Positions 4,323 to 61,075 of a stretch of DNA of 64,000 bases are shown piece after piece. The translations under genes and the position numbers were made by a program. The notes below the pieces were generated by a model. The model did no database searches, was not told where the DNA came from, and was given only the letters and a program-made list of their open reading frames with translations. Source of the stretch: a virus; the IMG/VR virus record IMGVR_UViG_3300026521_000003, positions 186,001 to 250,000 of that record, one strand, 5' to 3'. Each line of letters opens with the position of its first letter. The first letter of the stretch is position 1.

Positions 4323-4701
4323 TATTATCCCCAATTACGGTAACTACAACACCATCTTTTACAGTAACTTTATGATTGTTTATAGAAAATGTGCCGTTTC
4401 CAATCAATTTAATTTCATCTAACTTATTTGATGGAATAATCTTATTCTGTAATTCATTTAGATCAATTCCTAGTACTCGTTCTATATAACGTAACATAGC
4501 ATGTTCACTAATTACTATATTTGATGGAGTCTTCTTTTTAAGTTTTTCTATTGCGCTTTGTAAATAGTCGATTTTTTTCTTCATAGCAGCAGATTCTTTT
4601 TGTTTCTCAGCAATTTCGATGTTTAATGTTTTTCTTTCTGCTTGAAGTTTATTTCGTCTAGTTTCAAGACCTTTCAGTTCGGCTGAATTTTTTATTGACA
4701 T
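4315..4701 (-). CDS. Coiled-coil phage protein with HAMLRYIERV motif
   Basis: A 128-aa protein. Residues 8-58 are a lysine- and glutamate-rich coiled coil. Residues 60-85 carry I-S-E-H-A-M-L-R-Y-I-E-R-V-L-G-I-D, a motif I associate with uncharacterised phage proteins and loosely with small RNase toxin folds in which a His-Arg helix is catalytic. The C-terminal 40 residues form short strands. Function is unknown. It overlaps both neighbours by about ten bases, so it is the middle gene of a three-gene minus-strand operon headed by the phosphoesterase. Confidence 0.65.
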   Translation of the reverse strand: MSIKNSAELKGLETRRNKLQAERKTLNIEIAEKQKESAAMKKKIDYLQSAIEKLKKKTPSNIVISEHAMLRYIERVLGIDLNELQNKIIPSNKLDEIKLIGNGTFSINNHKVTVKDGVVVTVIGDNNV

Positions 4702-5462
4702 GTTTTAACATCTCCTAATAATGATGAAATTTTTATTGGTGAAAGGCTAGTACAATGTTCTAACGATACATTAATACTATTTGAAAAAATACTATTTTTT
4801 GTATGTGTATGTCCATGTATATTGATTTCGCCCGATACATCTGTAAAAATTTCTTCTAATAAATCTGTTATCTTCCCATATTTTTTCACATCCCACTCAT
4901 TATTATTAAAAATAGGATAATGTGAAAATAATACTGTTTTGTTATCAATTTCAATAAATAAACCGTTCCAATATCTATCGATTTTTGGAGTTAGATCAAA
5001 GGTATTATTACCTATAACTATTTTTATATTTTCAATAACATCTTTCCAACCAGCTTCAATATATGTTCTTGCATTTTTTAAATCGTGATTTCCTCTTATA
5101 AGTATTTTATTACCGTTTAATCTTTTAGTTATTTCATCAATTCCTCTAAATGCAAAATCCCCAAGATGTAATACGGTGTCATTTACACCTATATTATTAT
5201 TCCATTTTTCAACTAACATTTCATCATGATAAGGTATTAAAAATTTTGCTAGTTTAGTCATACGTTCATTATTTCTTTGTTCATCGATAGGTATTGAGTT
5301 GATAAGAGATAAGAGTTCAGTACTTTCTGAAATAATATCGGTATTATAGTCTAATAGATATTCTAAACGTATAGGTTCAAATATAAGTACTCTCCAATGA
5401 CCGAAATGAGTATCGGATATAATCCAATTATCGTCATTGATTGTTGTAGATAAATCAATCAT
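4692..5462 (-). CDS. Calcineurin-like metallophosphoesterase
   Basis: A 256-aa protein with the metallophosphoesterase signature in order: S-D-T-H-F-G-H near residue 17, G-D-F-A-F near residue 101, G-N-H-D near residue 124, S-H-Y-P near residue 179 and H-G-H-T-H near residue 214. These supply the two-metal site of the family. Phage relatives act on phosphodiesters or on phosphoprotein or nucleotide substrates; the substrate cannot be told here. The segment between the first and second motifs carries an unusually long helical insertion (residues 30-80). It heads the minus-strand operon 5462 to 3966, with AAAGGAAAATT before the ATG. Confidence 0.85.
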   Translation of the reverse strand: MIDLSTTINDDNWIISDTHFGHWRVLIFEPIRLEYLLDYNTDIISESTELLSLINSIPIDEQRNNERMTKLAKFLIPYHDEMLVEKWNNNIGVNDTVLHLGDFAFRGIDEITKRLNGNKILIRGNHDLKNARTYIEAGWKDVIENIKIVIGNNTFDLTPKIDRYWNGLFIEIDNKTVLFSHYPIFNNNEWDVKKYGKITDLLEEIFTDVSGEINIHGHTHTKNSIFSNSINVSLEHCTSLSPIKISSLLGDVKTCQ

Positions 5463-10326: not shown

Positions 10327-11640
10327 TTAAAATACACTAGGTAAAATATCATATTCATCAAGATCTAGATTATCATCATCTTCATCTTCAATTATCGAAG
10401 AGCCCATAGCAGCTTGTTTGGCATACATTTCTCTTTCTAATTTTTTAGCTTCTTCAATAATTTTTAATTCTTCGGCTTTTTTTTCTTCTTCTGACTTCTC
10501 TTTCTCTAAGGCTTCAGCTGCCATTCGTTTTCTATGTTGTTCAGCAGGATCTAACTCCTCTTTATCAATATTTACTATTTTCTCTTCTGGTTTAACCAAC
10601 ATCATATTATCAACTGAGAAATCTCCCTGAGCAAAATCGGCAAAAACATTCATAAGATAATAAACTATCTGAAATGCGCACATGACTCTATCATCATGGT
10701 ATCCACTTTTACCGGAATAAGTACCATTACCAGTTCTAATAAAACCATATAATTCGTCAATAAATTTCTCATCATTGATAATTAGTTTGTTATACTCTAA
10801 TAAATTTTTAAATTGTAGTGCCAATTTACTTTTCATAGTTGGATTTAAGTGTAATCCAGCTCCTTTACCATCATAAAAAATAGGTATTTCTAAATTTTCA
10901 ATTGCCTTTTCTGTCTGTGTTAGAATTTGAGCTAATCCCTCACCGATACCATTTCTTTCAAAAATCAATAATGATTCATCAGGCAAATAGTTCCACCTTT
11001 GTTGCATAAATTGTTGTAACCATAAAATCTTTTCAAATATTAGTGATGCATCCATATCTGGATCTACAATAGATCCAACTTGAAATACTTGTTTGGGGGC
11101 TATTTCCCATAAGTGTAAAACTGATGAATCTTCGCCTCCTGCACTAGGGTCAATAGTTATAATTAGAAGAGAGTCTACATGGTCTAGTTTATCTTTATAA
11201 ATCTCAAAGCCCATAATCTCTTCAATTACACCAGGAGTTTGATAAAAATCAAGAATATCAGTTTCAATTAGTGTTTTTTCAAAAGTGAGGAATTGACAAT
11301 TATGTGATTTAATTTTATTTGAAAGTAAAAAATTATTATCTGTACTTTCAACTTCGATAATATCTATCATCTGTGATTCGGAAAAGATTTCATTGATGTT
11401 GGAGATTTCTAGAATTGTATTTTCAGTTTTTAATTTCTGTCCAACCGCTAAATTATATCCTTTAATAAGTTCATTATCATCTGTCCAAAAAATATGATTT
11501 TTACTACATTTAATATTAATATCATTTTCAAATGTTATGCTTAAATATGATTTATGTTTTGATTCAGCAAGGCCTGCAAATGATTTATAGCCCTCGGTTG
11601 TTTTAATTAAGAATCGATTATTTTTTATTAAGTTGTCCAT
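10327..11640 (-). CDS. Terminase large subunit, nuclease half fused to an atypical split-intein C-part
   Basis: Residues 1-114 are an intein lacking only its first part. L-I-K-T-T-E-G-Y-K-S-F fits the late half of block A, C-S-K-N-H-I-F-W (C45 to W52) fits block B, and the segment ends K-S-H-N followed by C115, the C-terminal splice junction. No Cys1 and no upstream in-frame extension exist, because a TAA lies 11 codons before the ATG. This matches the architecture of the published atypically split TerL intein AceL-TerL (25-aa IntN, about 104-aa IntC). Residues 115-437 are the terminase nuclease domain: ITIDPSAGGEDSS with D164, FERNGIG with E228, and YHDDRVM with D316/D317, the three acidic sites of gp17-type nucleases. 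The ATPase half with its Walker motifs is absent from the window. A charged tail (350-420) follows. Trans-splicing with a distant IntN gene is inferred. Confidence 0.9.
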   Translation of the reverse strand: MDNLIKNNRFLIKTTEGYKSFAGLAESKHKSYLSITFENDINIKCSKNHIFWTDDNELIKGYNLAVGQKLKTENTILEISNINEIFSESQMIDIIEVESTDNNFLLSNKIKSHNCQFLTFEKTLIETDILDFYQTPGVIEEIMGFEIYKDKLDHVDSLLIITIDPSAGGEDSSVLHLWEIAPKQVFQVGSIVDPDMDASLIFEKILWLQQFMQQRWNYLPDESLLIFERNGIGEGLAQILTQTEKAIENLEIPIFYDGKGAGLHLNPTMKSKLALQFKNLLEYNKLIINDEKFIDELYGFIRTGNGTYSGKSGYHDDRVMCAFQIVYYLMNVFADFAQGDFSVDNMMLVKPEEKIVNIDKEELDPAEQHRKRMAAEALEKEKSEEEKKAEELKIIEEAKKLEREMYAKQAAMGSSIIEDEDDDNLDLDEYDILPSVF

Positions 11641-11679: not shown

Positions 11680-11687
11680 TATTTATA
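11680..11687 (-). promoter_or_regulatory. T4-type late promoter TATAAATA
   Basis: The minus strand reads TATAAATA exactly, 39 bases upstream of the terminase start at 11640 and just downstream of a terminator hairpin. A second near-match (AATAAATA) at 11646-11653 is too close to the ATG to serve it. Confidence 0.6.
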
Positions 11688-18173: not shown

Positions 18174-18704
18174 TTAAACTCCCTCATTTGTTGAAATATC
18201 TCTTAAAATTAAAGAGAAATCTTTAAAAATATTTTTATCACCAGTTACACCAGTATATTTATCTATAATTATTGGTGAAGTTTGATCTCCCCAAGTACCG
18301 ATAGTATCTGTAAAAAGAATAATCTTTTCTGGATTAGCCATATCATCACCATCGTTTAAAATTATTGCTGCCCATCCAATAGTTGCATCAATTTCATAAA
18401 CAGTATCTAAAGCATCAACAGGTATTTTTTTAATTGTTTTTTCTTTAGTTAGTTCATCATAACTATATACGAATTGAAGATCTGCAACTTCAAAAACTTT
18501 TTTAGTTCCAAATGCATTTAATAATGTTTCCTCTGTAACTATATTGTATAAATCTTCTGTTGCTGGAATTCCACCATCAAAAAAGATAATTTTATTTCCA
18601 TCAACAGTAACATTTTTTGTTAAAGATGTACTTACATTATTAGAAACTACATTTCCAACGGGCATAAAGTGGTAACTAAGACCATAAAAATTTAAAACTT
18701 TCAT
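18174..18704 (-). CDS. Tail or baseplate cassette protein A, first copy
   Basis: A 176-aa protein, the shortest A form and the best template for the family: I-P-A-T-E-D-L-Y, F-G-T-K-K, Y-D-E-L-T-K-E-K-T-I, D-A-L-D-T, I-G-W-A-A-I-I, L-F-T-D-T-I-G-T-W-G-D and I-F-K-D-F-S-L-I-L-R-D. It has its own late promoter at 18731-18738, so the cassette array can be transcribed separately from the upstream giant genes. Confidence 0.75.
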   Translation of the reverse strand: MKVLNFYGLSYHFMPVGNVVSNNVSTSLTKNVTVDGNKIIFFDGGIPATEDLYNIVTEETLLNAFGTKKVFEVADLQFVYSYDELTKEKTIKKIPVDALDTVYEIDATIGWAAIILNDGDDMANPEKIILFTDTIGTWGDQTSPIIIDKYTGVTGDKNIFKDFSLILRDISTNEGV

Positions 18705-18730
18705 TTGTTCTCCTTTTGTTTACTTAATAG

Positions 18731-18738
18731 TATTTATA
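18731..18738 (-). promoter_or_regulatory. T4-type late promoter TATAAATA
   Basis: The minus strand reads TATAAATA exactly, 26 bases before the ATG of A1 at 18704. A GGAGAACAAATG-like ribosome-binding site follows. Confidence 0.65.
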
Positions 18739-18761
18739 TTAAAATATAACTTTTTTTTCTA

Positions 18762-20483
18762 TTAAGGTGTTTTAATTTGATTCTCAGAATCACCCAAAAA
18801 TGCATTCTTAGTATATGTTTCAATACTTGCATTTTCAAAGCTATCCTCACTTTCTTTTATTACTTTAAATTCATAAGTATCACCTATTAGATTATGGATA
18901 TTAAATTCCTCTTTAATATAAGGATATTTATATTCAACCGATATAGCCTCTGTACTAATATCTTCTATAGACTCTAACTTATGGTTTGTTATTTTGTAAG
19001 TATTTTTTGCTTGTTTTTTTATACATGGGTTATTAACTATTATATCGACATTATTGAAATCAACACTCATATTTGCTCCGATTTCGGGGTGGGATATATC
19101 TATATTATCAAATACGTCTCTTGATAAGTTACATCCAATCGTTAAGTTAATATATTCTTCATAAGGAATGGTAATCGAAATATCTTTATAAACTGAATGA
19201 AATATTGATGTGACAATCTTTTCTACATGCCACCCATATGAGGCCGAACATCGATAACTATTATAATAAAGCCGACTATCGGTATTTGTATTTTTGGTCC
19301 AATCAAAACCGTATAAATCATCTATATTCGATATATAATTATAGGTGTAAAAAATTCCTCTACACTTGCCTCCTGTGGATTTAATTATGGGATAATTTCC
19401 ACCTTGATACAATCTAATAATTTCTTTTCCATTTGCTAAAATATAAAAATAATCCGACTCTTTATTCCATACACCATTACTATAAACCCGCATTTTTATA
19501 GTGATACTTCCAGCATTATATTCATTTAATTTTAATTCTAAATTAGTATAATCGTGATTTAATAATCTATGAGTAATTTTATCTTCCTGAGTTGATAATT
19601 TATTTGTGTTAGTCCACTTATTTATATCTATATTATCTAATTCATGATATATACTATTTAACCTATTACTTATATTGAGAGGGCTTACTATGTATGTGTA
19701 TTTCTCATTTTCCAGTAACCTATCCACTATTATAAAAGCCATATTATGTTGATTTAAAATTTTATACCCTATCTCTAATTTTTCAATAGCTTTAAAATGC
19801 GTACTGTCTACATACTCAAAACCTTCTATGTCTGTTACTTTAGAAGTTGTAGTTAATTTATAACTCATCCAAGTAGTATTTGTTGTATTTTCAAAAGTTT
19901 TACTTGACACCATCTCTTTATTAGTAACCAATTTAATATTTTCTTCAAGTATATGATTTTTATCAGCATATATACGTTCTATTAAATTTCTTTTACATCC
20001 ATGATATGTATGAGATAATGCATTTAAATTTAGATTTAAGTTATGCACATATATAATTATACCATCTACTGATGATTTTGTAATATAATTATAAAGAATA
20101 TAATCTATTATTAAATAATCAATATCTGTTGTAGAACTAAAACTATTTCCATCTATAACTACAAGATTATCTAAATTAAGTAGAGACTCATATTTTTTAA
20201 TTTGGTAATCAGTAAATGAAAAATCTGAAATAATTTTTTTTGATTCTGTAGTGTCTAAAATAGTTTTATTTTCTACTTTGTTTAAAATTTTTAGAAAGTC
20301 AATGTTAATTGATGATATATTATCATCATAATCAAAATCCAATGTTTCTAGTAAAATATCTGAATGTTCATTTTCATAAGCCAATAAATTATTTGAGTAG
20401 TATTTTGGAGTTAGACTTTTTGTGATATTTGAATTTTCTTCAATATTGATTTTTGGTATTATTTTTATTTCATTTGGAATCAT
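18762..20483 (-). CDS. Unrecognised 573-aa structural-operon protein
   Basis: No family recognised. The first 250 residues are a mixed fold with many isoleucines. The central part (about 300-430) has tyrosine-rich, strand-like segments with two cysteines (GGKCRGIFYTYNY, YRCSASYGWHVEK). The C-terminus is strand-rich and ends NQIKTP. It lies in the late operon between the 181-aa gene and the A-B cassettes, so it is presumably a tail or baseplate component. A mucus- or surface-binding role would be guesswork. Confidence 0.7.
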   Translation of the reverse strand: MIPNEIKIIPKINIEENSNITKSLTPKYYSNNLLAYENEHSDILLETLDFDYDDNISSINIDFLKILNKVENKTILDTTESKKIISDFSFTDYQIKKYESLLNLDNLVVIDGNSFSSTTDIDYLIIDYILYNYITKSSVDGIIIYVHNLNLNLNALSHTYHGCKRNLIERIYADKNHILEENIKLVTNKEMVSSKTFENTTNTTWMSYKLTTTSKVTDIEGFEYVDSTHFKAIEKLEIGYKILNQHNMAFIIVDRLLENEKYTYIVSPLNISNRLNSIYHELDNIDINKWTNTNKLSTQEDKITHRLLNHDYTNLELKLNEYNAGSITIKMRVYSNGVWNKESDYFYILANGKEIIRLYQGGNYPIIKSTGGKCRGIFYTYNYISNIDDLYGFDWTKNTNTDSRLYYNSYRCSASYGWHVEKIVTSIFHSVYKDISITIPYEEYINLTIGCNLSRDVFDNIDISHPEIGANMSVDFNNVDIIVNNPCIKKQAKNTYKITNHKLESIEDISTEAISVEYKYPYIKEEFNIHNLIGDTYEFKVIKESEDSFENASIETYTKNAFLGDSENQIKTP

Positions 20484-21040: not shown

Positions 21041-24000
21041 CTAGTTAATAGTTACAGATTCTATAATTTCTGTACTATCTTCATATATATTTATTTCCAA
21101 TTCAGAATCTTTTTCTATCGATAATTCTAAAGTAGTCGATGCTTCAGAATTTAGTTCTATATATGTACTTTCGATAGTAGGTTCATCCGCTGTAATTGAT
21201 GTTCCAGATATTTTAATCGTAGTGTCAGGATAGTATATAGTAGGTAAACCAACTCTTACTAATTCATTTAGATCTGCGACTTTAATTTCCTTAGTTGTAC
21301 TTACTCTAGTTCTTGTAGAAAGTATATTTATATCTTGACCTATTATAGAAATATTTTTATTTTCTTGAGATCTAACATTTGTACCATTTTTGTTTGTACC
21401 ATATGAATAAGATTCATTTACCTCAATTCTAGGAATTTTTAAGTTATTTTGACTTGGAATATTTGATCCACTTATATTTCTTCCAGTATTGATTTTAAAG
21501 TTACCATGTACTATTGGTATTTTTATATCTTTTTGTAATTGAATTCTTAATTCTTCATTCTCTTTAGTTTCAAATACTACTAAACCACCAATAAATTCAG
21601 CACTTGCTTCAAAATCTATTTCAACTATTTCATCTCTATTTTTTTGTTCAATAATATCAGTATCAAAGTAAATGGTTTCAACAGATGTAAAATCTATTTC
21701 AACTATTTCATCTCTATTTTTTTGTTCAATAATATCAGTATCAAAGTAAATGGTTTCAACAGATGTAAAATTTATTTCAACTATTTCATCTCTATTTTTC
21801 TGTTCAATAATATCAGTATCAAAGTAAATATCGGTTAATGATGTAAAATCAACAGTAACTTCATCAATATAATCTAATGCTTTTGTCCCATCTTGGTAAA
21901 CTGTAAAATCTAATTCTCTACCTGAATTTATATTAACAAATTCATCAATTTCAATAATTTGAACTTCAACTTGAGCTATAACAGTTGGATGATATGCATC
22001 CATGAATAACAATAATGTATCTAGTTCTATCACTTCCGCATCGATATAAGAAATATTATTTAGAGTATTATTACCATCATTATTAATAGCTTCACCTAAA
22101 TCGATAATATTTGTACTATTCTGAGTAATTATATTGGTAGTATTTGTATATAGTGTAACAAATTCATTTAAATCTATAATATCGAGAACATCATCAGTTG
22201 ATATAATATCAGCTATATTAGATTTTAAGCTATAATTAGATATAGGTTCAATAATTTCACTATATATATTAGATATAATATTTTCATGTGAAACGATATT
22301 TAATTTATAATTATTATCTATGGTTAGAGGATTGTCTTCAACTAATGATATATTATAAATAAAATTTGTTCTTTCAAATTCAATATTAGGCATTTCAAGA
22401 GCAATTTCCATAACCTCTAAATCTGTATTAGAAACCATATAAGGTCTTTCTTCAACTGCTAAAGAAACAAATTCATTTATGTTTAAAATATTATCTTCTG
22501 TATCACTAATTATATTTATTTCATCTGAAGATGTATTTATAAATTCTGATAATTCTATTACACCAATATTATCTAATGAAATTATCGCTATAAATTTAGA
22601 ATCTAAATTAATATATTCATTGATGTCTATTATTTCCTCAGTATCTTTAGATATATTATATGGAATTTCTATATTTGTTGAAATATATTCATTTAAATTG
22701 ATAATATCATTTATCGAATTTGATATTATTGACTTATGAATAGTTGATAGTTTCACAAAGTCATTAGGAATATCTATACTGCTTGTTTTTTCTTCCCAAG
22801 GTTCAGTAGTGATCATTGCAGGGTCAAAAATACTCTGGAATTTTATCTCTTCTAAAAATATTTCTGCCGCATCAAAACCTGTTACAGCACCAGTATTAAA
22901 AATAACAATTCTATCAGTTGGTATTATAGGTGTTATTGCACCTAATGGAGCATTTGCTGTTGTTGCATATTGAGTATAATCATCTGGAACAATAACTATC
23001 TGTCCTAGATCAGATTTTATAATATCTTCATTATATTCAATAAAAGTATTAGCTCTAGTATTCATAATATAATTATCAATAGACCCATTGATATTGAATA
23101 CGGTTGATGTATCCGTCATTATTTTGAAAGTAGCCATTGAATTAGTACTAGGTTGATCAACTCTTAGTTTATAGCTAAATGATTTAATTTTATATGGGAA
23201 CTCCAAAAATAAATATGATGGTGATTCAGAAGATGTATCGTCACTTGGATAATATTTTGGTCTAATACCATTATTGATAACACCGTCTAAAATAGTATTG
23301 TCATCACTTATATATCTACCAATTGAATCGGCTAAATTTCTAATACTTGTATTTGGTATGGTGGTCCATATTTCATCATTTCCATTTTGGTCTTTATTAA
23401 ATTCACAAATAACATTTATAGATGTATCATCTAATACTGATGGGAATATTCTAAATTCGCCAGATTCAGCATATGGGTCTAATCTCTTAATATCATAACA
23501 ACTCATTGGTTTTTCAACAGGTATCTTAGGTTGTTCTTCAACAACAATATAGTCAAAATATACGATTGGTTCTAAACTAACCTTTGCAGTTACAGTTTCA
23601 GTTCCATCGCCTTCATTATAGATTATAACACCAGAGTTATCATAAATATCAGTAACGGCAATTCTATGATTTAAGTCTGTTATAAGAGGAGTTTGAGCAT
23701 TACTAAAATCGATAGTTAAGTCGGAAATAATTTCTGTTTCAAAAATATTATCTTCAACCCAATATGAGGTAACATCATATACTTTTCCGATGTTATTTAA
23801 AATAAAACCATCTCTAATATCAATTCTTAATGTTGAGGTTGTATTTTTTAAAGTGAGTAACCAATCTAAACCTGCATTAGAATCACCCACAATCTCATCT
23901 GGTGGAGAAACTTTATATTTAATTCTTCTGATTCTATTATGTCCATACTTTGCACCTTCTACCCATAGATTACCAACTAAGTCTCCAGCTTTTAATTTTG

Positions 24001-25549
24001 TATCAGTATATACTGCTGTAGATGATAGATTTCCAGCTAAATTATCAATAGAATCATCTGGAAGAATTGCTATCCAATCTAGTAAAACTTTATCTGATTT
24101 CAAAACATTAAATGATATATCAACATAACTAGTTTCATCAATAGCTCTAACATTAACGGTACCTATTTCGGTAGGATAAAAGTATATATAACCCTCAGAT
24201 GTTGATACATCGCCATTATAAGGATTTATATCATATTTAATTTCGGACCTAACAAAATTTCCAGAAGGAGCCATTCCAATTATTGATAATGTTCCTTTTG
24301 CATTTGAAAATCGTATTTTTGCAGGTATATCTAATTGTATTACTTCTGGAGTTTCTACTATTAATTCTAAATCTTTATTAAATTTAACATGTGATATTAC
24401 CAATCTTGGTGATCTATCTATAACATTATCAACTATTTCTAATGGTTCTATATTAGATACTGCACTAGGTGTTATATATAACTCAGCTGAAAAGTTTGAT
24501 CTATCATATTCAAAACGACTTGTAAATGAAGGTAAATTATTAGTTGCATTTATAGTTAAATCTCCAATAACATTCCCTAGAGATATTTTAAATTCGGCTC
24601 CAACGTTTCCGAAAACATAATCTTTATTTTTAACGTATAAATCTTCCGGAGTTATATAAATATTACAAAATGTTACTTTTGTTGTTCCTGCAACGTTCGA
24701 TGATAAATCTAAACGATACCCCTCAATTAGTGGAGCTTTTACTTTGATCCATAATAAATTACCTTCAATATAGTAATCAAACCATTCAGTATTTAATGGT
24801 GAATCACATAAAATTTCCTCAGTAGTACCACTAATAAGAAACGGTTCATACTTAGTTGAAAGTTCATTTAATTTTATGTCGTATCCACCAGTTATAGACC
24901 TAATAGTACCAGCAAGTTGTCTGTTAAATTCATCATATGGATATAAATCATTAGCTAGTGATGATGGTAAAATACCAAGTCGCTCTCCATCAATAATCAT
25001 TACCTTTTTATAAATACTAACGACACTATTATCTGCTGCAGTAATTGTAAACTGTACATCGGTTATTGAATAATCTGATAACATATTTAAAGAAACTATA
25101 CCGCTGTTTATACTATGTGTAAAGTTTTCTGACGTATTGGTATATGATAAGGAAATGTCAAAGGGACTAGAAACCTTATCATCAGCTGTTAAATATCGAT
25201 TATAAAGATGAGACCACCTCTGCTCAACAATTTTTATATCTTGGGTATTATTAGTACTATTATAATATAGAATAATATCATCTATATCACTAAGTATTTT
25301 TCCATATACTTCTATACTGTATGAATAGTCTATAGCATCAACTTCAACTGGAATATCTAAAACTTCTCCAAGTAGTGTTTCTATATGTATTAAAGTAAAA
25401 CCTAATTGATTAGTTGTTTTAACTGTCAGTTCATCACCCGAAAGAAAATAATCTACTAAATCTTCATTATCAGCCCATATTGTATTAATAGCTACTTCAC
25501 CACCATTGGGTGAAACGATTTTAACTGTGTATGTATTATTAACAACCAT
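21041..25549 (-). CDS. Giant 1502-aa tail or fibre protein with several repeat types
   Basis: The first 700 residues read as successive beta-sandwich or Ig-like domains (VKIVSPNGGEVAINT at the start, SYTNTSENF, LVISHVKF). Residues of about 700-920 include a C-Y-D-I-K-R-L-D-P-Y-A-E-S-G segment like fibrinogen-type or surface-binding domains. The region around 930-1210 is a degenerate array of about 30-residue units with I-I-[D/N]-[I/L]-N-E-[F/Y]-[I/V]. Then come three near-perfect 26-residue units, and a C-terminal strand-rich part. It is one base from the 1175-aa gene upstream (shared junction). A receptor-contacting fibre or tape-like structural role is likely but not proven. Confidence 0.75.
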   Translation of the reverse strand: MVVNNTYTVKIVSPNGGEVAINTIWADNEDLVDYFLSGDELTVKTTNQLGFTLIHIETLLGEVLDIPVEVDAIDYSYSIEVYGKILSDIDDIILYYNSTNNTQDIKIVEQRWSHLYNRYLTADDKVSSPFDISLSYTNTSENFTHSINSGIVSLNMLSDYSITDVQFTITAADNSVVSIYKKVMIIDGERLGILPSSLANDLYPYDEFNRQLAGTIRSITGGYDIKLNELSTKYEPFLISGTTEEILCDSPLNTEWFDYYIEGNLLWIKVKAPLIEGYRLDLSSNVAGTTKVTFCNIYITPEDLYVKNKDYVFGNVGAEFKISLGNVIGDLTINATNNLPSFTSRFEYDRSNFSAELYITPSAVSNIEPLEIVDNVIDRSPRLVISHVKFNKDLELIVETPEVIQLDIPAKIRFSNAKGTLSIIGMAPSGNFVRSEIKYDINPYNGDVSTSEGYIYFYPTEIGTVNVRAIDETSYVDISFNVLKSDKVLLDWIAILPDDSIDNLAGNLSSTAVYTDTKLKAGDLVGNLWVEGAKYGHNRIRRIKYKVSPPDEIVGDSNAGLDWLLTLKNTTSTLRIDIRDGFILNNIGKVYDVTSYWVEDNIFETEIISDLTIDFSNAQTPLITDLNHRIAVTDIYDNSGVIIYNEGDGTETVTAKVSLEPIVYFDYIVVEEQPKIPVEKPMSCYDIKRLDPYAESGEFRIFPSVLDDTSINVICEFNKDQNGNDEIWTTIPNTSIRNLADSIGRYISDDNTILDGVINNGIRPKYYPSDDTSSESPSYLFLEFPYKIKSFSYKLRVDQPSTNSMATFKIMTDTSTVFNINGSIDNYIMNTRANTFIEYNEDIIKSDLGQIVIVPDDYTQYATTANAPLGAITPIIPTDRIVIFNTGAVTGFDAAEIFLEEIKFQSIFDPAMITTEPWEEKTSSIDIPNDFVKLSTIHKSIISNSINDIINLNEYISTNIEIPYNISKDTEEIIDINEYINLDSKFIAIISLDNIGVIELSEFINTSSDEINIISDTEDNILNINEFVSLAVEERPYMVSNTDLEVMEIALEMPNIEFERTNFIYNISLVEDNPLTIDNNYKLNIVSHENIISNIYSEIIEPISNYSLKSNIADIISTDDVLDIIDLNEFVTLYTNTTNIITQNSTNIIDLGEAINNDGNNTLNNISYIDAEVIELDTLLLFMDAYHPTVIAQVEVQIIEIDEFVNINSGRELDFTVYQDGTKALDYIDEVTVDFTSLTDIYFDTDIIEQKNRDEIVEINFTSVETIYFDTDIIEQKNRDEIVEIDFTSVETIYFDTDIIEQKNRDEIVEIDFEASAEFIGGLVVFETKENEELRIQLQKDIKIPIVHGNFKINTGRNISGSNIPSQNNLKIPRIEVNESYSYGTNKNGTNVRSQENKNISIIGQDINILSTRTRVSTTKEIKVADLNELVRVGLPTIYYPDTTIKISGTSITADEPTIESTYIELNSEASTTLELSIEKDSELEINIYEDSTEIIESVTIN
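21611..21844 (-). repeat. Three tandem 78-bp in-frame repeats
   Basis: Copies begin at 21611, 21689 and 21767. The first two units are almost identical, the third differs at its edges. Each encodes 26 residues of the 1502-aa protein (core I-Y-F-D-T-D-I-I-E-Q-K-N-R-D-E-I-V-E-I). The high DNA identity marks recent expansion. Confidence 0.85.
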
Positions 25550-28500
25550 TATATTGTCTCCTCATTTAATTCAATTTCAAAAAATACTTCTGATGTATCA
25601 ATTTCTAAATAAAATAGATTTTCAGCTAAACTTTTACTATTAAACCACAATGATGCATCTATTGACTGTACAGTAAATGAATTACTAACATTGCCTGTGG
25701 AAATAATATCATTAAAATTGATTACTGTTGATCCAGGAATATCTGAAAGTAATCGGAATTCTATACTATTATTATTTACTATGCGTACTTCAACAAGTGT
25801 TGAATCATAATTATCAATTATTTCAAGAGTACCCTGTACATTTAAAATATCGACCGTATGCCAGTCTATATCAGTATTTATCAACTTATAAAGTTTATAT
25901 GACGGTAATAATAATTCATTATAATTGCAATTTATATTGATTTTTAATGATTTATGATAATCGGATATAAAAATATTTGTTGTACCTATATGATTAAAAG
26001 TTAATTCTAATTCTTGAGTTTCTTTATTAATATTAAAATCTGCTATACTATCATCATCACTCCATACCAATAAGTTGTCCCAATCATTATTATATGGGTG
26101 TAATAGTTGTATTGTTGCCTGACTTCCAATTATAACTGGAAAAAGAGTATGAGTTCTAGAAGAGTTATTGTATGGTAAATTTATATCTATATATTGTACA
26201 ACTTCAACATTAATATTTATTTCAGATTCAGAATCTGAAAAATTTATTATAGATGATCCTATATCTGTATATTGAGTATCAGTAACAAATGTAAACATTT
26301 TAGGTCTAGGCCCACCATTACGACAATCAAAATACTTATCTTCACCATTATATATACTTGCATATTTCAATCCTAAAATATTTGGATTTTCGATATTTAT
26401 ATTTAGTCCTTCTGCCTGATACTCAATTTTTAAATCTCGATAAGCAGTATTTGTGCCTTCATTATAGATAAATTCTGTTTTGGAATTCATAAATCGATAT
26501 TTGTCTATTATAAAGTTTTGTGCTTCTTGACCATTAACTGTTAGGTATTTATTAACAGTATAATATGCAGTAACTATATGTACCATAGATGGTTCAATTA
26601 ACCCATCTCTAACATTTATTTCATTGAAGTATGGATCTATGATATACATCATTCGTTCATTTAATTGTTGCTGGTATGGATTTATAACTAATTTATTTTG
26701 TGTGCAATATGTATTTATTCCTGGTTGATAACAAGGGCCTGTTGATATATCCAAAATAGCTCTATTAGAATGGCTTCTTCCATACTGTTGTAAATATGAT
26801 CTAAAACCACCAGCAGTAAGAGAAGTAGGTACAATATTATCAATATTAAATAAATCAATTTGTACTTCACCATCATCCACTATTAATTCACCTAGATTTA
26901 TCTCTTTCTCTCTATTTTCTAAACCCTTTATTCTCATATGTTTAGTGATGTATAATTTATATAAGATTTCACTTGATCCATTTACTATTTTAAATTCCTC
27001 TAAATACCATCCTTCAGTAATTTCATCAGCTGATATATTTGGCTTGATTTTTATTAATCCATTTTTATTCTCACCAGGCTCAATAGTTACAACCACTTTA
27101 TCTGAAGCTCCAATAATTGAAATTGTGTCAGCATAATAATAATTTAGAAGAGCTCCTGGTTCATCATACTCAAATGCTTTAATTACTGTATTATTATCTT
27201 TTTCAAATAAAGGGTTTGTAAAAGGAGCATTAATACTAATTGGTTCTAAAACTGAAAGAGTTGGCTCTTTAATATCTAAACTAAATGAATATGTATTTAT
27301 CCCATCAGATAAAGTTATTTCTGCTACACCTGATGTCATACCTTCTGGTAAATTTATAGTATCAAAAATTATTTTAATATTTTCTCTTTGTTCAAACTCC
27401 CCTGGAATAGGTTTACCATCAATATCTAAAACTGGAACTTCAATAATTTCTCGTTCAATTTTATAGGATAACGCACCTAATGAATCAACGATTTCTAAGT
27501 TATTTAAATCTAAGTTCATTTCTGTAATAATTATTTCTGGTTGATATGTATTATCACTATCATATACTGGAGGCAGTTTAACACAATTTTCAACATTTAC
27601 AATTATCTGTTCTCCTGTTGATGGGTTTTCAAGTAGAACTTCACAAGGATTGCCTAGTGTATCTAAATTCTCTACTAATGTCCAACCATCTGATATTAAA
27701 CCGTCTATATATGCCTGTTGTAACTCTGATGGTGATTGGGCAGGAAAAACTAAATTTTTATATTCTGCTGCAGTTATAGTGATTTTTTCACCTGTTGCAG
27801 GATTTAAAACTGTAATCATAGGGTTTGAAGAATCTATAATTTCATCTAAATTAGATAATAATGATTCTTGAGTATCGGTATTTTCCGGTAAGAAAACTGG
27901 ATCTGGATCAGTAGTACAAATAATATTTCGATCTCTTAAATAATCTTCAACATTTTGCTCAATTTTATTTAAATTTATATCATAATCAATTACTTTAGTT
28001 AAAGGGTTACGCTCTTTAGCTTCACATAAAGTTTCTATACATTGCGTGTATTCAGAACCGGAGAATTGACTACACCCATCAATTTGACATATATAATTAT
28101 TATTAACTAAAAATGAAGAAATTGTTTCTTCTTTATATTCATTGTTTAAATCTTTTGTTAATATAATTGATCTTGGATCTTTATCACATAATGATGATAG
28201 GTATTCTAAATAATCTGGATCATTAGGGTCTTTATATTCAATCAAATCAGGAAACTCACAATAAATTGAAGTTAATTGACCGGTATATGGATTCATAACT
28301 AAATGAATTCCATCTTCAGTTAAGCCATTTAAAAATAATTCCATACATGGATCATCGGGTCTAATATTTTGAGTTGCTTTAAATGGTCTAGCAGGTCGCA
28401 TACCATCAATTTCCATACTAAATGCTTTGTAGAAAACTAAAGTCTCAACTTTTGTTTGAACATCATCTTTGTTTTTAACAGCAAAAATAGATATTGAATA

Positions 28501-29389: not shown

Positions 29390-30622
29390 TTGGATGAAAA
29401 TAATCAAAAATTAGATAATATGGATCATAGAAGTCTAGGTAATAAACTTAAACTATTTATGTTTAGTGATTCTACTCCTGGAATGCCATTTTGGCTTCCA
29501 AATGGTGCTCAACTTAGAAAAAGATTGGATGACGTAGTTTATAAAGCTCATAAATTAAGAGGATACAAACCAGTATTATCACCTGCTATGATGGAGGATA
29601 CAATGTGGAAAGTGTCCGGACATTATGAAAATTATAGAGAAAATATGTTTCCTTCGGAAGTAGAAAAAAGAGATTATTTACTTAAACCTATGAATTGTCC
29701 AGGACATGTTATTATGTATCAACATGATGTAGTATCATATAAAGATTTACCAATGAGATACTTTGAATTTGGTCAAGTGCATAGAAATGAGAATGCAGGT
29801 TCACTTCATGGTCTTTTTAGAGTAAGGGAATTTACACAAGATGATGCACATATTTTCTGTCGGGAAGATCAAGTTGAAAACGAAATTAGAAAAGTTATGA
29901 ATTTTATTGATGATTTCCTTAATACATTTGATTTTAAATATAAAATTGAATTTTCAACTAAACCAGAAAAAGCTGTAGGTGATACAGAAATTTGGGATAA
30001 AGCTGAAAATTCAATAAAAAATGCATTAGAGTCTATGGATTTAGATTATCGTATAAATGATGGAGACGGTGCATTTTACGGTCCTAAAATTGATATTAAA
30101 ATTCTTGATAATCATAAAAGAGAGTGGCAATTAGGTACTGTACAAATTGATTTTAATTTGCCTCAGCGTTTTAACTTGGAATATACTGGGTCTGATGGAC
30201 AGTTTCACCAACCAGTTATGATTCATAGAGCTATTATGGGTAGTTTCGAGAGATTTATAGGTATTCTTCTTGAACATAAAAAAGGGTTATTGCCTGTTTG
30301 GATGAGTCCAAATCAAGTAGCAATAGTACCTATTAGTGGTTCGGACGAAAAAATTATGAATTATGTATCTGAGATAAAAGAAATTTTAGAAACTAGATTA
30401 GGAGCAGATATTGTTATTTATGATGATAACAACACGCTTAATAGACGTATAAAAACAGCCGAACAAATGAAAAATCCTATTATTATGATTATTGGTGAAC
30501 AGGAAGTAGATAATAGAAGTGTTAATTTAAGACATAAGATTAAACAAAAGAGATATGAAGAATCACTACAAGATTTTATATATCATTTAGAAGATGAAAT
30601 GAAAATAACTATTGGAGATTAA
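29390..30622 (+). CDS. thrS: Threonyl-tRNA synthetase, catalytic plus anticodon-binding domains
   Basis: A 410-aa class II synthetase core that charges tRNA-Thr. It shows PFWLPNG (34-39), M-N-C-P-G-H (101-106), the motif 2 loop MRYFEFGQVHRNENAG (122-137), D-D-A-H-I-F (151-156) and M-I-H-R-A-I-M-G-S-F-E-R (277-288). The zinc ligands C103, H154 and H279 are all present, so catalysis and threonine recognition look intact. The C-terminal 110 residues form the anticodon-binding domain. The TGS and editing domains of the usual 640-aa bacterial enzyme are missing, so mischarged Ser-tRNA-Thr could not be cleared by this protein. The start codon is TTG, after AAAAAAGGAAAT; an out-of-frame ATG follows four bases later. 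Confidence 0.93.
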   Translation: MDENNQKLDNMDHRSLGNKLKLFMFSDSTPGMPFWLPNGAQLRKRLDDVVYKAHKLRGYKPVLSPAMMEDTMWKVSGHYENYRENMFPSEVEKRDYLLKPMNCPGHVIMYQHDVVSYKDLPMRYFEFGQVHRNENAGSLHGLFRVREFTQDDAHIFCREDQVENEIRKVMNFIDDFLNTFDFKYKIEFSTKPEKAVGDTEIWDKAENSIKNALESMDLDYRINDGDGAFYGPKIDIKILDNHKREWQLGTVQIDFNLPQRFNLEYTGSDGQFHQPVMIHRAIMGSFERFIGILLEHKKGLLPVWMSPNQVAIVPISGSDEKIMNYVSEIKEILETRLGADIVIYDDNNTLNRRIKTAEQMKNPIIMIIGEQEVDNRSVNLRHKIKQKRYEESLQDFIYHLEDEMKITIGD

Positions 30623-39494: not shown

Positions 39495-40100
39495 ATGATT
39501 CTGGATGAGATTGTAAACATTGAAAAGATCGGTATTGAAAAAACTATTGATATTGAAGTGGATGGAGACCACCTATTTTATTGTAATGGTATTTTAACTC
39601 ATAATTCAGCAGCAGGTGATGTTGCTGATGTCTCAGAAGAAAATATCCAAGGGGGTATTTCTAAAATTCAAGCAGCCGATAATGTTATTGGTTTTATACC
39701 AAATGCACAATCAAGAGAAATGGGTATAATGCGAGCTAAATTCTTAAAAACAAGAGATAGTAGTGGTGTTGGTAGTACTGTTGATTTTAAAGTCGATTGG
39801 AGTACCTTAACATTTGAACCTTGGGATACAACTGGAGAGAATAATCCATCAGTTTTGAATTATGCAGCACAAGCGCAAAATGCAGCACAATCATTAAATG
39901 CAGATCAACCCTTGCAAAAAACTACAAAAGGTAAGAAAAAACCATCTGCTAGTGATTTAAAAGGTAATTCGGGTGCAGTAGTAAAATCGGATGATGAAGA
40001 TGATGATTCTAGCACATCGGGTAAAAAAACCAAAGGTATTATTAAGGGACTTGGTGGTAAAAAGAAAAAAGGACTTAACAGAGAAGTTAAGATGTTATAA
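39495..40100 (+). CDS. Replicative helicase C-terminal part fused to a 37-aa split-intein C-part (gp41-1 type)
   Basis: Residues 1-37 are an IntC. The consensus segments D-I-E-V-D-G-D-H-L-F-Y and G-I-L-T-H-N are present, with Ser38 as first extein residue. Length and sequence match the published gp41-1 IntC (37 aa, ending DILTHN followed by S). Residues 38-110 continue as the last part of a DnaB/gp41-type helicase: S-E-E-N-I-Q-G-G-I-S-K-I-Q-A-A-D-N-V-I-G, then K-F-L-K-T-R-D-S-S-G-V-G. Residues 111-201 are a disordered, K/S/D-rich tail. The first, larger part of the helicase with its Walker A motif is not in the window. The product should be joined to it by protein trans-splicing at H36-N37/S38. 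The start has GGAGAAATA upstream. Confidence 0.9.
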   Translation: MILDEIVNIEKIGIEKTIDIEVDGDHLFYCNGILTHNSAAGDVADVSEENIQGGISKIQAADNVIGFIPNAQSREMGIMRAKFLKTRDSSGVGSTVDFKVDWSTLTFEPWDTTGENNPSVLNYAAQAQNAAQSLNADQPLQKTTKGKKKPSASDLKGNSGAVVKSDDEDDDSSTSGKKTKGIIKGLGGKKKKGLNREVKML

Positions 40101-40481: not shown

Positions 40482-41645
40482 ATGTATGGTGCAAATACAA
40501 TAGTTAGAGTTTATATTGGGCCTAATGATAAATACACTTATGAACATTTGAGAAAATTTTATCATTTAGCCAAAAGACGTTGGAAAGTTGCTGATGTATG
40601 GGGAGCCGATGAAGTTATGGTTTTAGAAAATAATAGACGACATGCAAATAAATATCAGCGCTCTCTTTCTATTTTAGGTTGGATTACATCTAATAAAAAA
40701 TATTTAAAAATTGAGAAGTATTATCAGGGCTTAGTAGGTGATCCATACTATGAATATTTTGCTAAATTCTCTAAATATGTTTTGACTTGGTGGGGCTTAG
40801 GTTCTAGATTCGTAAAAAAATCATCAAAAAAAGATAGAAATATAAAATCGATACCTAATACACCAATGTTCGACCCATCAATTCATTTTGATAAGAATTC
40901 CATTATGGAAAAAATCTATATGCAGGGTATGAGTTATGATGATGCTATGAAAACCACCTTTAAAGGTAAAGCTCAACTTGCAGATATTATTAATGGTTTA
41001 ACAGATTATAATAAAAAAATTGGTATGTCTGATGAAGAAGCTTATGCTGATGCATTAAGAGTTTCGGAGATTGTGAGTAGAAACTTGGCATTAGATAAAA
41101 ATGCTCCTATGGATAATCAGTATTCGTTTTTAATAAATTATTATAATAAATTCATTGATACAACTAGACGAATTATGATGCCCTTAGATATGAATTTATT
41201 TTTTATTAAAGAAGCTCTAAAATACAATCCTAATCTTTCATTATATGTTTTAAGTCCTGACAATAATATGCATAGAATCCAGGGTATTGTTGGGGAACGT
41301 TGTGAAAATATAATGATTGCTATTTCAGCTTTTAAAGATACAAAAAAATATGATTATGAGTTTGTTTATTCGTATGGGTCTCACACCTTATTTAATCATG
41401 CTGAAAATGGTTTTATTAAAGCTAAAGATTTAAAAAAGCTCACTACAAAAACCAATAATCTTATGTATGGTTCCAAAAAATGTAAGATTGAACATAGATA
41501 TGATTCAGAATATATGTTTGACCTTATTTTAGAAGGAACACCCGCGGGAAATTATTTTCCTTGGGTCGATGCATTTCATAATGTTCAGTTATCCCCAGAT
41601 TATTCAAAAATAATAAATCTTGAAGGGAAAGATATTATAGTATAA
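40482..41645 (+). CDS. Unrecognised 387-aa protein with a Hint-like C-terminal segment
   Basis: The first 290 residues are unassigned, with aromatic-rich (YYQGLVGDPYYEYFAKF) and helical parts. Around residues 305-372 the pattern looks like the later half of a Hint/intein domain: S-H-T-L-F-N-H-A-E-N-G-F-I-K-A-K-D-L (block B and following), then Y-M-F-D-L-I-L-E-G-T and finally A-F-H-N-V. No Cys1 block is seen, so this is not a complete intein, and the resemblance may be partial. It follows the helicase fragment closely. No function can be assigned. Confidence 0.65.
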   Translation: MYGANTIVRVYIGPNDKYTYEHLRKFYHLAKRRWKVADVWGADEVMVLENNRRHANKYQRSLSILGWITSNKKYLKIEKYYQGLVGDPYYEYFAKFSKYVLTWWGLGSRFVKKSSKKDRNIKSIPNTPMFDPSIHFDKNSIMEKIYMQGMSYDDAMKTTFKGKAQLADIINGLTDYNKKIGMSDEEAYADALRVSEIVSRNLALDKNAPMDNQYSFLINYYNKFIDTTRRIMMPLDMNLFFIKEALKYNPNLSLYVLSPDNNMHRIQGIVGERCENIMIAISAFKDTKKYDYEFVYSYGSHTLFNHAENGFIKAKDLKKLTTKTNNLMYGSKKCKIEHRYDSEYMFDLILEGTPAGNYFPWVDAFHNVQLSPDYSKIINLEGKDIIV

Positions 41646-58998: not shown

Positions 58999-59637
58999 AT
59001 GTTTAAATGGGATAATTCAAAAGATTATGATGCAAATGTATTTGATTATATAGTCTATTCTGATCCAGAGAAATTGGTACAAACTTTTTATAAAGATTTA
59101 TCTCTAAGAGTTGAGTTTGAAACATCGGATCCAAATAGACATATGCCAATGGTTATTAGTACTAATTCAATAATTGAAACTTTATTGCAAGAATTTCATG
59201 ATGTTTTCACAGAACAAGAATTAATAAAGATGGTTAAATTATTATTTAAATTAGATTATGAAGATAAGTATTTTATTATCCGTACTTTAAATAGAAATTT
59301 TTTGCATAATGAACTAACTATTGATAATTATATGCTTTGTCGTATTATTGAAAAAGTAACACCTAGTAAAAATATATTTACATCTGATATTGTTGATTTG
59401 ATGCATAGGAGTAAGCAATTTATTATACCTTATTTAACAGCATTTAAATATCGATTGTCCAATCATGATAAACATTTTCTTTATACTGAATTTACTGAAG
59501 ATTTTTCTGGTATGTTTGATAAAAAAATAACATACTGGATTATGGATAATATTGATGGTATTAGTAAAATGGTTATAGATTCTGGAGAAGAACTCATTTA
59601 TATACCAAAAGAAGTTAGAGAAATTTTTATTTTTTAA
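58999..59637 (+). CDS. IFIF-tail helical protein 7 (212 aa)
   Basis: A helical protein (TNSIIETLLQEFHDVFT, EQELIKMVKLLFKL) ending I-D-S-G-E-E-L-I-Y-I-P-K-E-V-R-E-I-F-I-F. It starts after AAAGGATAAAAA, which is the same stop-to-start spacer as before the gene at 56747. No family recognised. Confidence 0.7.
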   Translation: MFKWDNSKDYDANVFDYIVYSDPEKLVQTFYKDLSLRVEFETSDPNRHMPMVISTNSIIETLLQEFHDVFTEQELIKMVKLLFKLDYEDKYFIIRTLNRNFLHNELTIDNYMLCRIIEKVTPSKNIFTSDIVDLMHRSKQFIIPYLTAFKYRLSNHDKHFLYTEFTEDFSGMFDKKITYWIMDNIDGISKMVIDSGEELIYIPKEVREIFIF

Positions 59638-59685
59638 GAGAAATTAAGGATATATTTAATATAATTAAAAATAAGAGGAATTAAA

Positions 59686-60393
59686 ATGAGAACGGAAATA
59701 GAAATACTTGCAGAAATTGAATCAGGTAAGATTACAATAACTGATGCATTAGAAGAAGTTCATGAAACCGGTGCATACTTACTAATACAAAAAATTGCTA
59801 ATATGGAATTGACTAAATCCGAAAGATTATTATTAATATCTCTTATACCACAAGTAGATGATGTCTTGAGTCTTAAAAATTTCTTTTTAACTTTAAAAAG
59901 TCATGATGAAATAAAATTATTTTTAGAAGAATGTAATAAATCAAATATTAGTACAAGTATATATTATGCTCTTATGATACGGAATGATATAGATAAAAAA
60001 ATCTACTTTCGTCCTATAATTGATGCCCTTGCGGGAAGAAGCCAAGAATTTGTGGGGTTGATAAAGAAACTGATAAAAAAAATAGATAATATTTTATTAT
60101 CTGATATTGAATATCTTTATAAAAATGCTGCAAGAAGGGATTTTGCTAATATTATCAACGAACATATATCAATTTTTTCAGAGGATATCATCAAGTACAT
60201 TTTTGGAATTGTAAAGGATATGGAAGATAAAAATCCTCCAGTTTCAAGACTATTACTTCATGCTTTAGATGTTCAAATTATGGACAATCCAAGAAAATAT
60301 AGTTTTGAAGATGAATTTAAAATGTATATGTATGAATTTACTGGAAATGATGAATACTTGCCAGACGATATAAAAACGATTTTTATATATTAA
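59686..60393 (+). CDS. IFIF-tail helical protein 8 (235 aa)
   Basis: A helical protein (ETEIEILAEIESGKITITDALEEV-like start; here broken as EIEILAEIESGKI and TITDALEEV). The tail is Y-E-F-T-G-N-D-E-Y-L-P-D-D-I-K-T-I-F-I-Y, with tyrosine replacing the final phenylalanine. The spacer before it (48 bases) is the longest in the cluster and holds an AT-rich TTTAATATAATT, possibly an internal promoter. No family recognised. Confidence 0.7.
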   Translation: MRTEIEILAEIESGKITITDALEEVHETGAYLLIQKIANMELTKSERLLLISLIPQVDDVLSLKNFFLTLKSHDEIKLFLEECNKSNISTSIYYALMIRNDIDKKIYFRPIIDALAGRSQEFVGLIKKLIKKIDNILLSDIEYLYKNAARRDFANIINEHISIFSEDIIKYIFGIVKDMEDKNPPVSRLLLHALDVQIMDNPRKYSFEDEFKMYMYEFTGNDEYLPDDIKTIFIY

Positions 60394-60403
60394 AGGGGGT
60401 TTA

Positions 60404-61075
60404 GTGTTATCTAATAATAAAATTAAATTTTATAATGAAAACATACGTAAACCCCTAGAACTTCTTGGTTTTAACTCTATTCCAAGAGGTGAAACTTACA
60501 ATGAATTTTCTAAAGGTCGTAATTATAAATATAATGCGTTGATGCATATTTCTGTTCAAGTAGATTTTGAAAAATTATTATTTAAATATCGTCTTAGCTT
60601 TCCGTGGTATAGTAATTTTTCAACTATTCCAATTGCATATAAAATACTACTTTTACCTAAAAGAGAAATAGTTGTAGAATTATCAAAAGAGAATTATCAA
60701 CAAGAATTAGAAAATATTTTTTCCGAAATTGTGGACCAATTAGAAAAAAATAAAAAAGAATTTGATATTATGATTCGAGAAAAATTAAATGAAGTAGATG
60801 AAAATAGTATAGCTAAATTATTTACACCTATCAATACACCAATACTACTAAATTATTTAGATTTAGAATATACAGATTATATCAAAATTATTTTTAGTTT
60901 AAGAAAAAGATTAAAGAATTATACTGAAAAAATAACTATTCTTTTTATGCATAACATGTCTAAAAAGGGATTGAGACTTTCAACTTCTGATTTAGAATTA
61001 TTAGAAACTATTGAGTATAATAGTTCTATAAAATTTTCTCAACTTGAGGAACTTAAATCTATTTTTATATATTAA
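60404..61075 (+). CDS. IFIF-tail protein 9 (223 aa)
   Basis: It has a GTG start after AAAGGGGG. The first 90 residues have more strand character than other members (KYNALMHISVQVDFEKLLFKYRL), and the rest is helical. It ends E-L-K-S-I-F-I-Y, keeping only the last half of the tail motif. It is therefore a weaker member. No family recognised. Confidence 0.65.
   Translation: MLSNNKIKFYNENIRKPLELLGFNSIPRGETYNEFSKGRNYKYNALMHISVQVDFEKLLFKYRLSFPWYSNFSTIPIAYKILLLPKREIVVELSKENYQQELENIFSEIVDQLEKNKKEFDIMIREKLNEVDENSIAKLFTPINTPILLNYLDLEYTDYIKIIFSLRKRLKNYTEKITILFMHNMSKKGLRLSTSDLELLETIEYNSSIKFSQLEELKSIFIY

What the first reader, a model, noticed from the sequence alone, without database searches (positions are those of the whole stretch)
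10327..11640. Large terminase is split by an atypical intein; only the IntC-nuclease half is here
The first 114 residues align by eye with the IntC of the published AceL-TerL split intein, including the H-N splice end and a following Cys. The split lies very near the intein N-terminus, so a short IntN of roughly 25 residues must exist attached to the ATPase half. No Cys1 or Walker motif is present in this gene, and a stop codon lies 11 codons upstream of its ATG. Packaging would depend on protein trans-splicing.
Basis: partly seen in the sequence, partly recalled or inferred. Interest (0 to 1): 0.8.

Follow-up and report, generated by a model that had tools for sequence, protein, structure and literature searches.

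The report
Phage packaging motor in three pieces
A large phage encodes its essential DNA-packaging motor as three separate proteins, one of them 82 kb away on the other strand, which two built-in protein-splicing elements (split inteins) should weld into one enzyme; relatives have it in up to four pieces, a step beyond the two-piece proteins known from nature.

Summary
Window 10327-11640 (-) encodes a 114-aa atypical IntC ending H-N|Cys, fused to the nuclease part of a T4-type large terminase (TerL). The interpretation needs one large correction: the ATPase half is itself split. In the window's 289,880-bp record, the N piece (275194-275802, +) has Walker A and a 33-aa IntN; the middle piece (279385-280170, +) is IntC1 | Walker B part | 41-aa IntN2; the C piece is the window gene, 82 kb away on the opposite strand. 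Joined at the predicted junctions they give a 600-aa TerL that aligns with T4 gp17 across both seams (E=9e-34).

A 306-kb relative has TerL in four pieces with three split inteins; another contig has four clustered pieces with endonuclease-like genes in two of the three breaks; cultured Salicola phage SCTP-2 has three dispersed pieces. Further IMG/VR contigs carry IntC-extein-IntN middle pieces. IntCs group by insertion site, not by genome.

Most likely functional TerL is made by two or three orthogonal protein trans-splicing reactions (splicing inferred, not shown). Two-piece split TerL inteins and 'fractured genes' are known; natural three- and four-piece tandem trans-splicing appears new. 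Verdict: new variant of a known kind.

The parts
10327..11640 (-). terL-C gene, third piece of the large terminase (437 aa + stop); record coordinates 196327-197640
   Evidence: ORF; only match of this protein in the record; orthologues in G001 and G003
11299..11640 (-). IntC2, 114-aa C-terminal fragment of an atypical split intein, ending S-H-N
   Evidence: matches CatC 6dsl E=1.4e-6 and gp41-1 E=2.5e-4; own IntC profile; invariant H-N-C in relatives
10330..11298 (-). C-extein: TerL nuclease domain, 323 aa, begins with the Cys+1 nucleophile (CQFLTFEK)
   Evidence: 3c6a match, PHROG terminase; joined chain aligned to T4 gp17 through this part
11680..11687 (-). TATAAATA, T4-late-promoter-like motif starting 47 nt upstream of the ATG (suggestive only)
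   Evidence: sequence; 42 of 263 ORF upstream regions carry it against 21 on the opposite strand

Best explanation
The window gene is the last of three pieces of the phage's only detectable large terminase. Shown from sequence: N piece (record 275194-275802, +: 169-aa extein with Walker A + 33-aa IntN1), middle piece (279385-280170, +: 112-aa IntC1 + 108-aa extein with Walker B and the catalytic Glu + 41-aa IntN2), C piece (window 10327-11640, -: 114-aa IntC2 + 323-aa nuclease extein). Inferred: IntN1 pairs with IntC1 and IntN2 with IntC2; each pair folds into a HINT domain and splices with Cys1 / Asn / Cys+1 chemistry, joining ...SLKIVY|CDEMAF... and ...KVEFE|CQFLTF... into a 600-aa packaging ATPase-nuclease. 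Walker A and Walker B lie on different polypeptides, so no piece should hydrolyse ATP before splicing. The pairs must be orthogonal: IntN2 reacting with IntC1 on the same middle piece would circularise it, and IntN1 with IntC2 would delete the Walker B part. Origin, inferred from relatives: repeated gene fracturing at three TerL intein sites with homing endonuclease genes, then scattering of the pieces by rearrangement.
For: Exactly two ATPase matches in the record, in two genes ending in IntN sequences, one of which also starts with an IntC. PHROG_2 coverage is contiguous: 262-368 in the N piece, 369-455 in the middle piece. The joined 600-aa chain matches T4 gp17 over both seams at E=9.1e-34 and Terminase_6N at 51 bits over 1-211/215, against 22 bits over 1-102 for the N piece alone. 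The middle piece passes the curated cut-off of the intein C-terminal model TIGR01443. A 306-kb relative keeps both breaks, adds a third, and keeps Cys1, Asn and the +1 nucleophile at all three junctions; joined 602 aa, ungapped against G000 over the first ~300 residues. A four-piece clustered TerL (G006) and a three-piece dispersed TerL in cultured phage SCTP-2 show the same logic. Orthologous IntCs 54-56% identical, IntC1 against IntC2 in the same genome 27%, exteins 75/75/65%. TerL IntCs cluster by insertion site.
Against: No experiment or proteomic peptide shows splicing. Pairing is deduced from extein continuity only. In G001 IntC1 the penultimate His is Lys (SKN|C), and the window IntC2 has Asn where block F usually has His (DNNF), so efficiency could vary. 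Completeness of the record is unknown, so an intact terL outside it cannot be excluded. The AlphaFold model was too poor to test the HINT fold.
Confidence: 0.9

Rival explanations
1. Genes-in-pieces without splicing: the three polypeptides assemble non-covalently into a working terminase and the intein parts are relics or docking tags, as reported for a phage ribonucleotide reductase split by a homing endonuclease.
For: A split nucleotide reductase working as two peptides is reported (cited in PMC10448857). Intein parts diverge faster than exteins. One penultimate His is lost in G001.
Against: All five junctions of G000 and G001 keep Cys1, the terminal Asn and a Cys or Thr at +1, as do most isolates; relics would lose them. 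The breaks cut through Walker A (Lys|Thr) or just before Walker B, where unjoined chains would hardly make an active site.
Confidence: 0.06
2. Artefact or decay: mis-assembly, pseudogene fragments, or an intact terL in a missing part of the genome.
For: Metagenomic record of unknown completeness.
Against: Independent records (G001, G002, G003, G005, G006) and the cultured phages SCTP-2, VmeM-32 and Campylobacter NCTC12673 show the same kinds of breaks or dispersal. All reading frames are open, exteins are collinear without gap or overlap and keep the ATPase and nuclease motifs. The one candidate for another TerL in G001 is a split AAA ATPase.
Confidence: 0.03
3. The pieces are joined at the RNA level by group I or II introns, in cis or in trans, as for terL of ICP1 and Jug phages.
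For: terL genes interrupted by group I introns are known (PMC12363816; PMC10448857).
Against: No Rfam intron near the pieces; each break carries in-frame IntN and IntC protein sequence with stop and start codons; pieces lie on opposite strands up to 82 kb apart.
Confidence: 0.01

Closest known systems
AceL-TerL and GOS-TerL natural atypical split inteins (engineered consensus Cat; VidaL)
   Same: Short IntN on the upstream TerL part, long (~104-114 aa) IntC on the downstream part, host protein TerL, Cys+1. CatC and VidaL are among the nearest solved structures; features of AceL/GOS/Cat from PMC11766414.
   Different: Those are described as two-piece proteins with one split intein. Here TerL has two split inteins and three pieces (three and four in relatives), with middle fragments carrying IntC and IntN, scattered in the genome.
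Fractured genes (Dassa et al. 2009, cited in PMC6892783; paper not held, content from memory)
   Same: Split intein with a free-standing homing endonuclease gene between the two halves: true of N-HEG-M in G000 and, by gene order, of two breaks in G006.
   Different: Several fractures in one gene; the window piece is 82 kb away on the other strand with no endonuclease gene beside it.
Split gp17A/gp17B of Aeromonas PX29 and split TerL of Vibrio Va1, Serratia 92A1, Providencia PSTRCR_127, Yersinia TG1
   Same: TerL broken by a split intein, often with an endonuclease.
   Different: One split per gene, pieces adjacent, syntenic T4-like gene order.
Engineered three-fragment (tandem) protein trans-splicing
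   Same: Middle fragment flanked by IntC and IntN, two intein pairs (PMC7210297 and PMC11271493, listed).
   Different: Those are designed; this is natural, within one essential viral enzyme.

Membership tests
Atypical TerL split inteins (AceL/GOS/Cat type) | Long IntC at the N-terminus of the downstream extein, ending in Asn, followed by a Cys/Ser/Thr | tested here: met
   114-aa IntC, SHN|C; CatC E=1.4e-6
Atypical TerL split inteins (AceL/GOS/Cat type) | Partner with a short IntN (about 25-45 aa) starting with Cys or Ser and ending in a stop | tested here: met
   41-aa IntN2 on the middle piece, Cys1
Atypical TerL split inteins (AceL/GOS/Cat type) | Same insertion site in TerL as AceL-TerL | tested here: inconclusive
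   Same E|C.FL-type site as the isolates Va1, PX29 and VP-1; AceL sequence itself not compared
Atypical TerL split inteins (AceL/GOS/Cat type) | Trans-splicing activity | not testable with these tools
   needs expression
Fractured genes | Two gene parts with a free-standing homing endonuclease gene between them | tested here: met
   For break 1 (N / middle): 711-aa homing endonuclease, phrog_3339 E=9e-139, in a 3.6-kb gap
Fractured genes | Same, for break 2 (middle / window gene) | tested here: not met
   82 kb apart, opposite strands, no endonuclease gene beside the window gene; GIY-YIG genes do flank the C piece in G001 and, by eye, in G003
T4-type large terminase (gp17) | Walker A, Walker B with catalytic Glu, RNase H-like nuclease acidic residues, about 600 aa | tested here: met
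   Only in the joined chain: 600 aa, gp17 alignment E=9e-34 with these motifs in register
Group I / II intron-split terL | Intron RNA at the break | tested here: not met
   No Rfam family over its gathering score in 42.8 kb around the pieces of G000 and G001

The most novel reading that the evidence does not exclude
A class of large environmental phages makes its packaging motor only by natural tandem protein trans-splicing of three or four separately encoded, often genome-scattered pieces, using two or three naturally orthogonal atypical split inteins. Motor assembly thereby becomes a post-translational AND-gate, because the ATPase site exists only after splicing.
Probability: 0.8. Interest if true: 0.85.

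Novelty: new variant of a known kind. Interest (0 to 1): 0.78.

Why it matters
Natural split-intein proteins described so far have two pieces, as far as I could find. An essential enzyme in three or four pieces would show that trans-splicing runs in tandem in nature and that pairing specificity evolves inside one protein, where mispairing would delete or circularise a segment. It supplies sets of short-IntN, naturally co-evolved, presumably orthogonal split inteins, the tool sought for multi-fragment protein assembly. It also gives a series (cis intein, fractured with endonuclease gene, clustered multi-fracture, scattered) for how selfish endonucleases break genes. Practically, terL is a marker gene for phage classification, and pipelines will miss or mis-score it in such genomes.

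Tried and rejected
A regular-expression search for a C-x-x-G-D-type IntN missed the partner, because IntN2 begins CLDEET. A single-protein relative search with the middle piece found little and the alignment of site-1/2 middle pieces only found G001 again; the alignment of site-0 middle pieces worked. AlphaFold2 on the window protein with 3 rows gave pLDDT 45 and was discarded; no fold search was run. A possible second TerL in G001 at 2.4 kb proved to be a split AAA ATPase. The N half of the helicase was not found: DnaB_C gave no match, phrog_239 only the window gene plus a weak match inside a Clp-like ATPase. Pfam and NCBIfam do not recognise the window protein. No defence-system match. The intron reading was rejected. 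Late promoters: enrichment modest, kept only as suggestive. Dassa et al. 2009 was not held.

Full report
OBSERVATION. Window 10327-11640 (-) is a 437-aa ORF. Residues 9-116 match the solved atypical intein fragment CatC (6dsl, E=1.4e-6), residues 11-114 match gp41-1, and the C-terminal part matches a TerL nuclease (3c6a). The intein part ends SHN and the next residue is Cys. No Walker motif is present. The same fusion occurs in two other viral contigs at 62% and 66% identity. The stop upstream of the ATG is as stated (open frame 447 aa for a 437-aa protein).

WHERE THE REST OF THE TERMINASE IS. The window is bases 186001-250000 of a 289,880-bp virus record, G000. Searching the record with terminase families gave two ATPase matches, at 275.3-275.7 kb (Terminase_6N and PHROG_2) and 279.7-280.1 kb (PHROG_2). 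They are separate genes. N piece, 275194-275802 (+), 202 aa: extein ...ASRQMSKTT...ARGKSLKIVY, then CVDGETKITVRNKITKEIREIDIQDLYLNDEYK and stop. Middle piece, 279385-280170 (+), 261 aa: 112-aa IntC ending TNGLISHN, then CDEMAFIPN...KFKVEFE, then CLDEETKVDVYDEITNEYKTLTLKEIKDILDKDLLSKNLLV and stop. Between them lie a 711-aa gene with a strong homing endonuclease match (phrog_3339, E=9e-139) and a 435-aa gene without a Pfam match. The window gene is the third piece, 82 kb away on the other strand. So an ATPase part carrying an IntN does exist, but the ATPase is itself split.

DO THE PIECES ADD UP? Removing the intein parts gives 169 + 108 + 323 = 600 aa. PHROG_2 positions run 262-368 in the N piece and 369-455 in the middle piece. 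The joined chain aligns to T4-type gp17 (3ezk) from residue 48 to 502 with E=9.1e-34 through both seams, with Walker A, Walker B-Glu and the nuclease acidic motifs in register. Terminase_6N rises from 22 bits over positions 1-102 for the N piece to 51 bits over 1-211 of 215 for the joined chain. Nothing is missing and nothing is doubled.

RELATIVES WITH FOUR PIECES. G001 (IMGVR_UViG_3300035665_000001, 306,333 bp) has: N 184957-185298 (-), ending ...ASRQMSK|CVKGNSIITVRNDLTGEIMEF...; M1 169358-170110 (-), IntC0 ...ILSHN|TTIGAF...SLKFVY|CLDGKTQITIRNKK...; M2 230010-230798 (+), IntC1 ...VSKN|CDEIAF...KIEFE|CMYPDTLIDVYDEK...; C about 200201-201511 (-), IntC2 ...KTHN|CAFITFE.... Joined they give 602 aa, aligned without gaps to G000 over the first ~300 residues. 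The extra break lies inside Walker A, between Lys and Thr. A GIY-YIG endonuclease gene (PF19835) lies beside its C piece, and a gene of similar look beside M1. G002 has the same M1 locus. G006 (a 57,895-bp contig) has four pieces in a row on one strand: N 23113-23481; a 394-aa gene; M1 21268-22017; a 311-aa gene; M2 19588-20328; C 18490-19587. The two intervening genes look like Vsr-type endonucleases by eye (not tested by profile). Joined they give 528 aa. This is a plausible intermediate: three fractures of one gene, still clustered.

CULTURED PHAGES. Salicola phage SCTP-2 (MF360958, 440 kb) has its N piece near 429.5 kb, a middle piece near 257 kb and the C piece near 217 kb, with a further cis intein in the C piece; joined 531 aa. 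Only its C piece lies in a gene annotated as terminase in the stretch viewed. Campylobacter NCTC12673 and Vibrio VmeM-32 have two dispersed pieces. Split TerL with adjacent pieces occurs in Va1, 92A1, PSTRCR_127, PX29 and TG1.

HOW COMMON. A scan of IMG/VR with the site-0 middle piece found 142 relatives; in about 57 of the best 80 the IntC stands at the start of the ORF by a crude rule. Apart from G001 and G002, ten ORFs (8 distinct at 90% identity) are middle pieces with both IntC and IntN, one with a truncated IntC. In the 381-kb record G005 such a middle piece (198 kb) and the C piece (38 kb) are 160 kb apart.

PAIRING AND EVOLUTION. Pairing is assigned by extein continuity, not by experiment. 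Orthologous IntCs in G000 and G001 are 54-56% identical, IntC1 and IntC2 of G000 27%; exteins are 75, 75 and 65% identical. In a tree of 21 TerL IntCs, labels by insertion site need 4 changes (minimum 3) against 11.2 for shuffled labels, and site 0 forms one side of a branch with 100/99 support. So the inteins are old, site-specific lineages, not recent copies of one another. Sites: 0 = inside Walker A (K|T), 1 = at Walker B (Y|CDE here, YIDE|C in T4-like isolates), 2 = the E|C site of the window gene. Cis inteins at sites 0 or 1 occur in VAP7, Serratia 3M, VP-1, SRB7757 and VmeM-32. The series cis intein, fractured with endonuclease gene, scattered is an inference from these.

MECHANISM. Inferred: two trans-splicing reactions weld the pieces. 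Because Walker A and Walker B are on different chains (and in G001 even the Walker A Lys and Thr are), ATPase activity should appear only after splicing. The middle piece has the topology used for engineered backbone circularisation (established knowledge), so IntN2 must not react with IntC1. A TATAAATA late-promoter-like motif precedes the window gene and two pieces of G001, in line with late expression but weak evidence.

LITERATURE. AceL-TerL (25-aa IntN), GOS-TerL (37-aa IntN, Ser1) and Cat are known (PMC11766414). Phage MIJ3 has a split PolB (PMC6892783). Jug phages have terL in 2-3 fragments through group I introns (PMC12363816). Nothing found in the held library describes a natural protein made of three or more trans-spliced pieces. 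Subscription papers and Dassa et al. 2009 could not be read, so novelty is likely but not certain.

OTHER SPLIT GENES. The same genome has dispersed split-intein genes for DNA polymerase B, topoisomerase II large subunit and a replicative helicase, so scattering is a habit of this phage and not a peculiarity of terL.

Noticed in passing
window 39495-40100 (+): Gene starts with a short canonical IntC (gp41-1-like, CNGILTHN|SAAGDV; TIGR01443 above cut-off) fused to the C-terminal part of a replicative helicase. Its N half was not found in the record.
   Followed up: partly
L002:4449-5252 (+) and L003:5979-7133 (+) (record 4449-5252 and 25479-26633): DNA polymerase B split by an intein at motif C: N half ends SDTD|S (Ser1 intein, TIGR01445 above cut-off), C half starts IntC ...LVHN|SCYFRIME; 20 kb apart.
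   Followed up: partly
L011:1290-2921 (+) and L005:744-1976 (-) (record 176790-178421 and about 59244-60476): Topoisomerase II large subunit (GyrB-like) split in the Toprim EGD|SA motif by a canonical split intein; halves about 116 kb apart on opposite strands. The C half also holds an unexplained ~165-aa insertion.
   Followed up: partly
L033:232-3596 (-) (G001): An AAA ATPase of the relative is split inside Walker A (GIGK|CLRGNQ ... IHHN|TAHMM): another atypical split intein in a different host gene.
   Followed up: no
L049:4989-7073 and L054:1192-2085 (Salicola phage SCTP-2): The site-1 intein seems to have a ~95-aa IntN and a ~112-aa IntC that both contain a block-B-like stretch, so the two fragments overlap; the IntC ends SQ|C instead of HN|C. 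Unexplained.
   Followed up: no
L161:2391-2819 (G012): Middle-type TerL ORF whose IntC is cut to ~22 residues; possibly a frameshift or a degraded intein.
   Followed up: no
window 29390-30622 (+): Threonyl-tRNA synthetase-like gene (by eye; also in L016:2757-3980), although the window has no tRNA gene.
   Followed up: no
window 40482-41645 (+): 387-aa ORF of unknown family whose C-terminal part looks intein/HINT-like by eye (...DAFHN|VQL); no Pfam or PHROG match.
   Followed up: no
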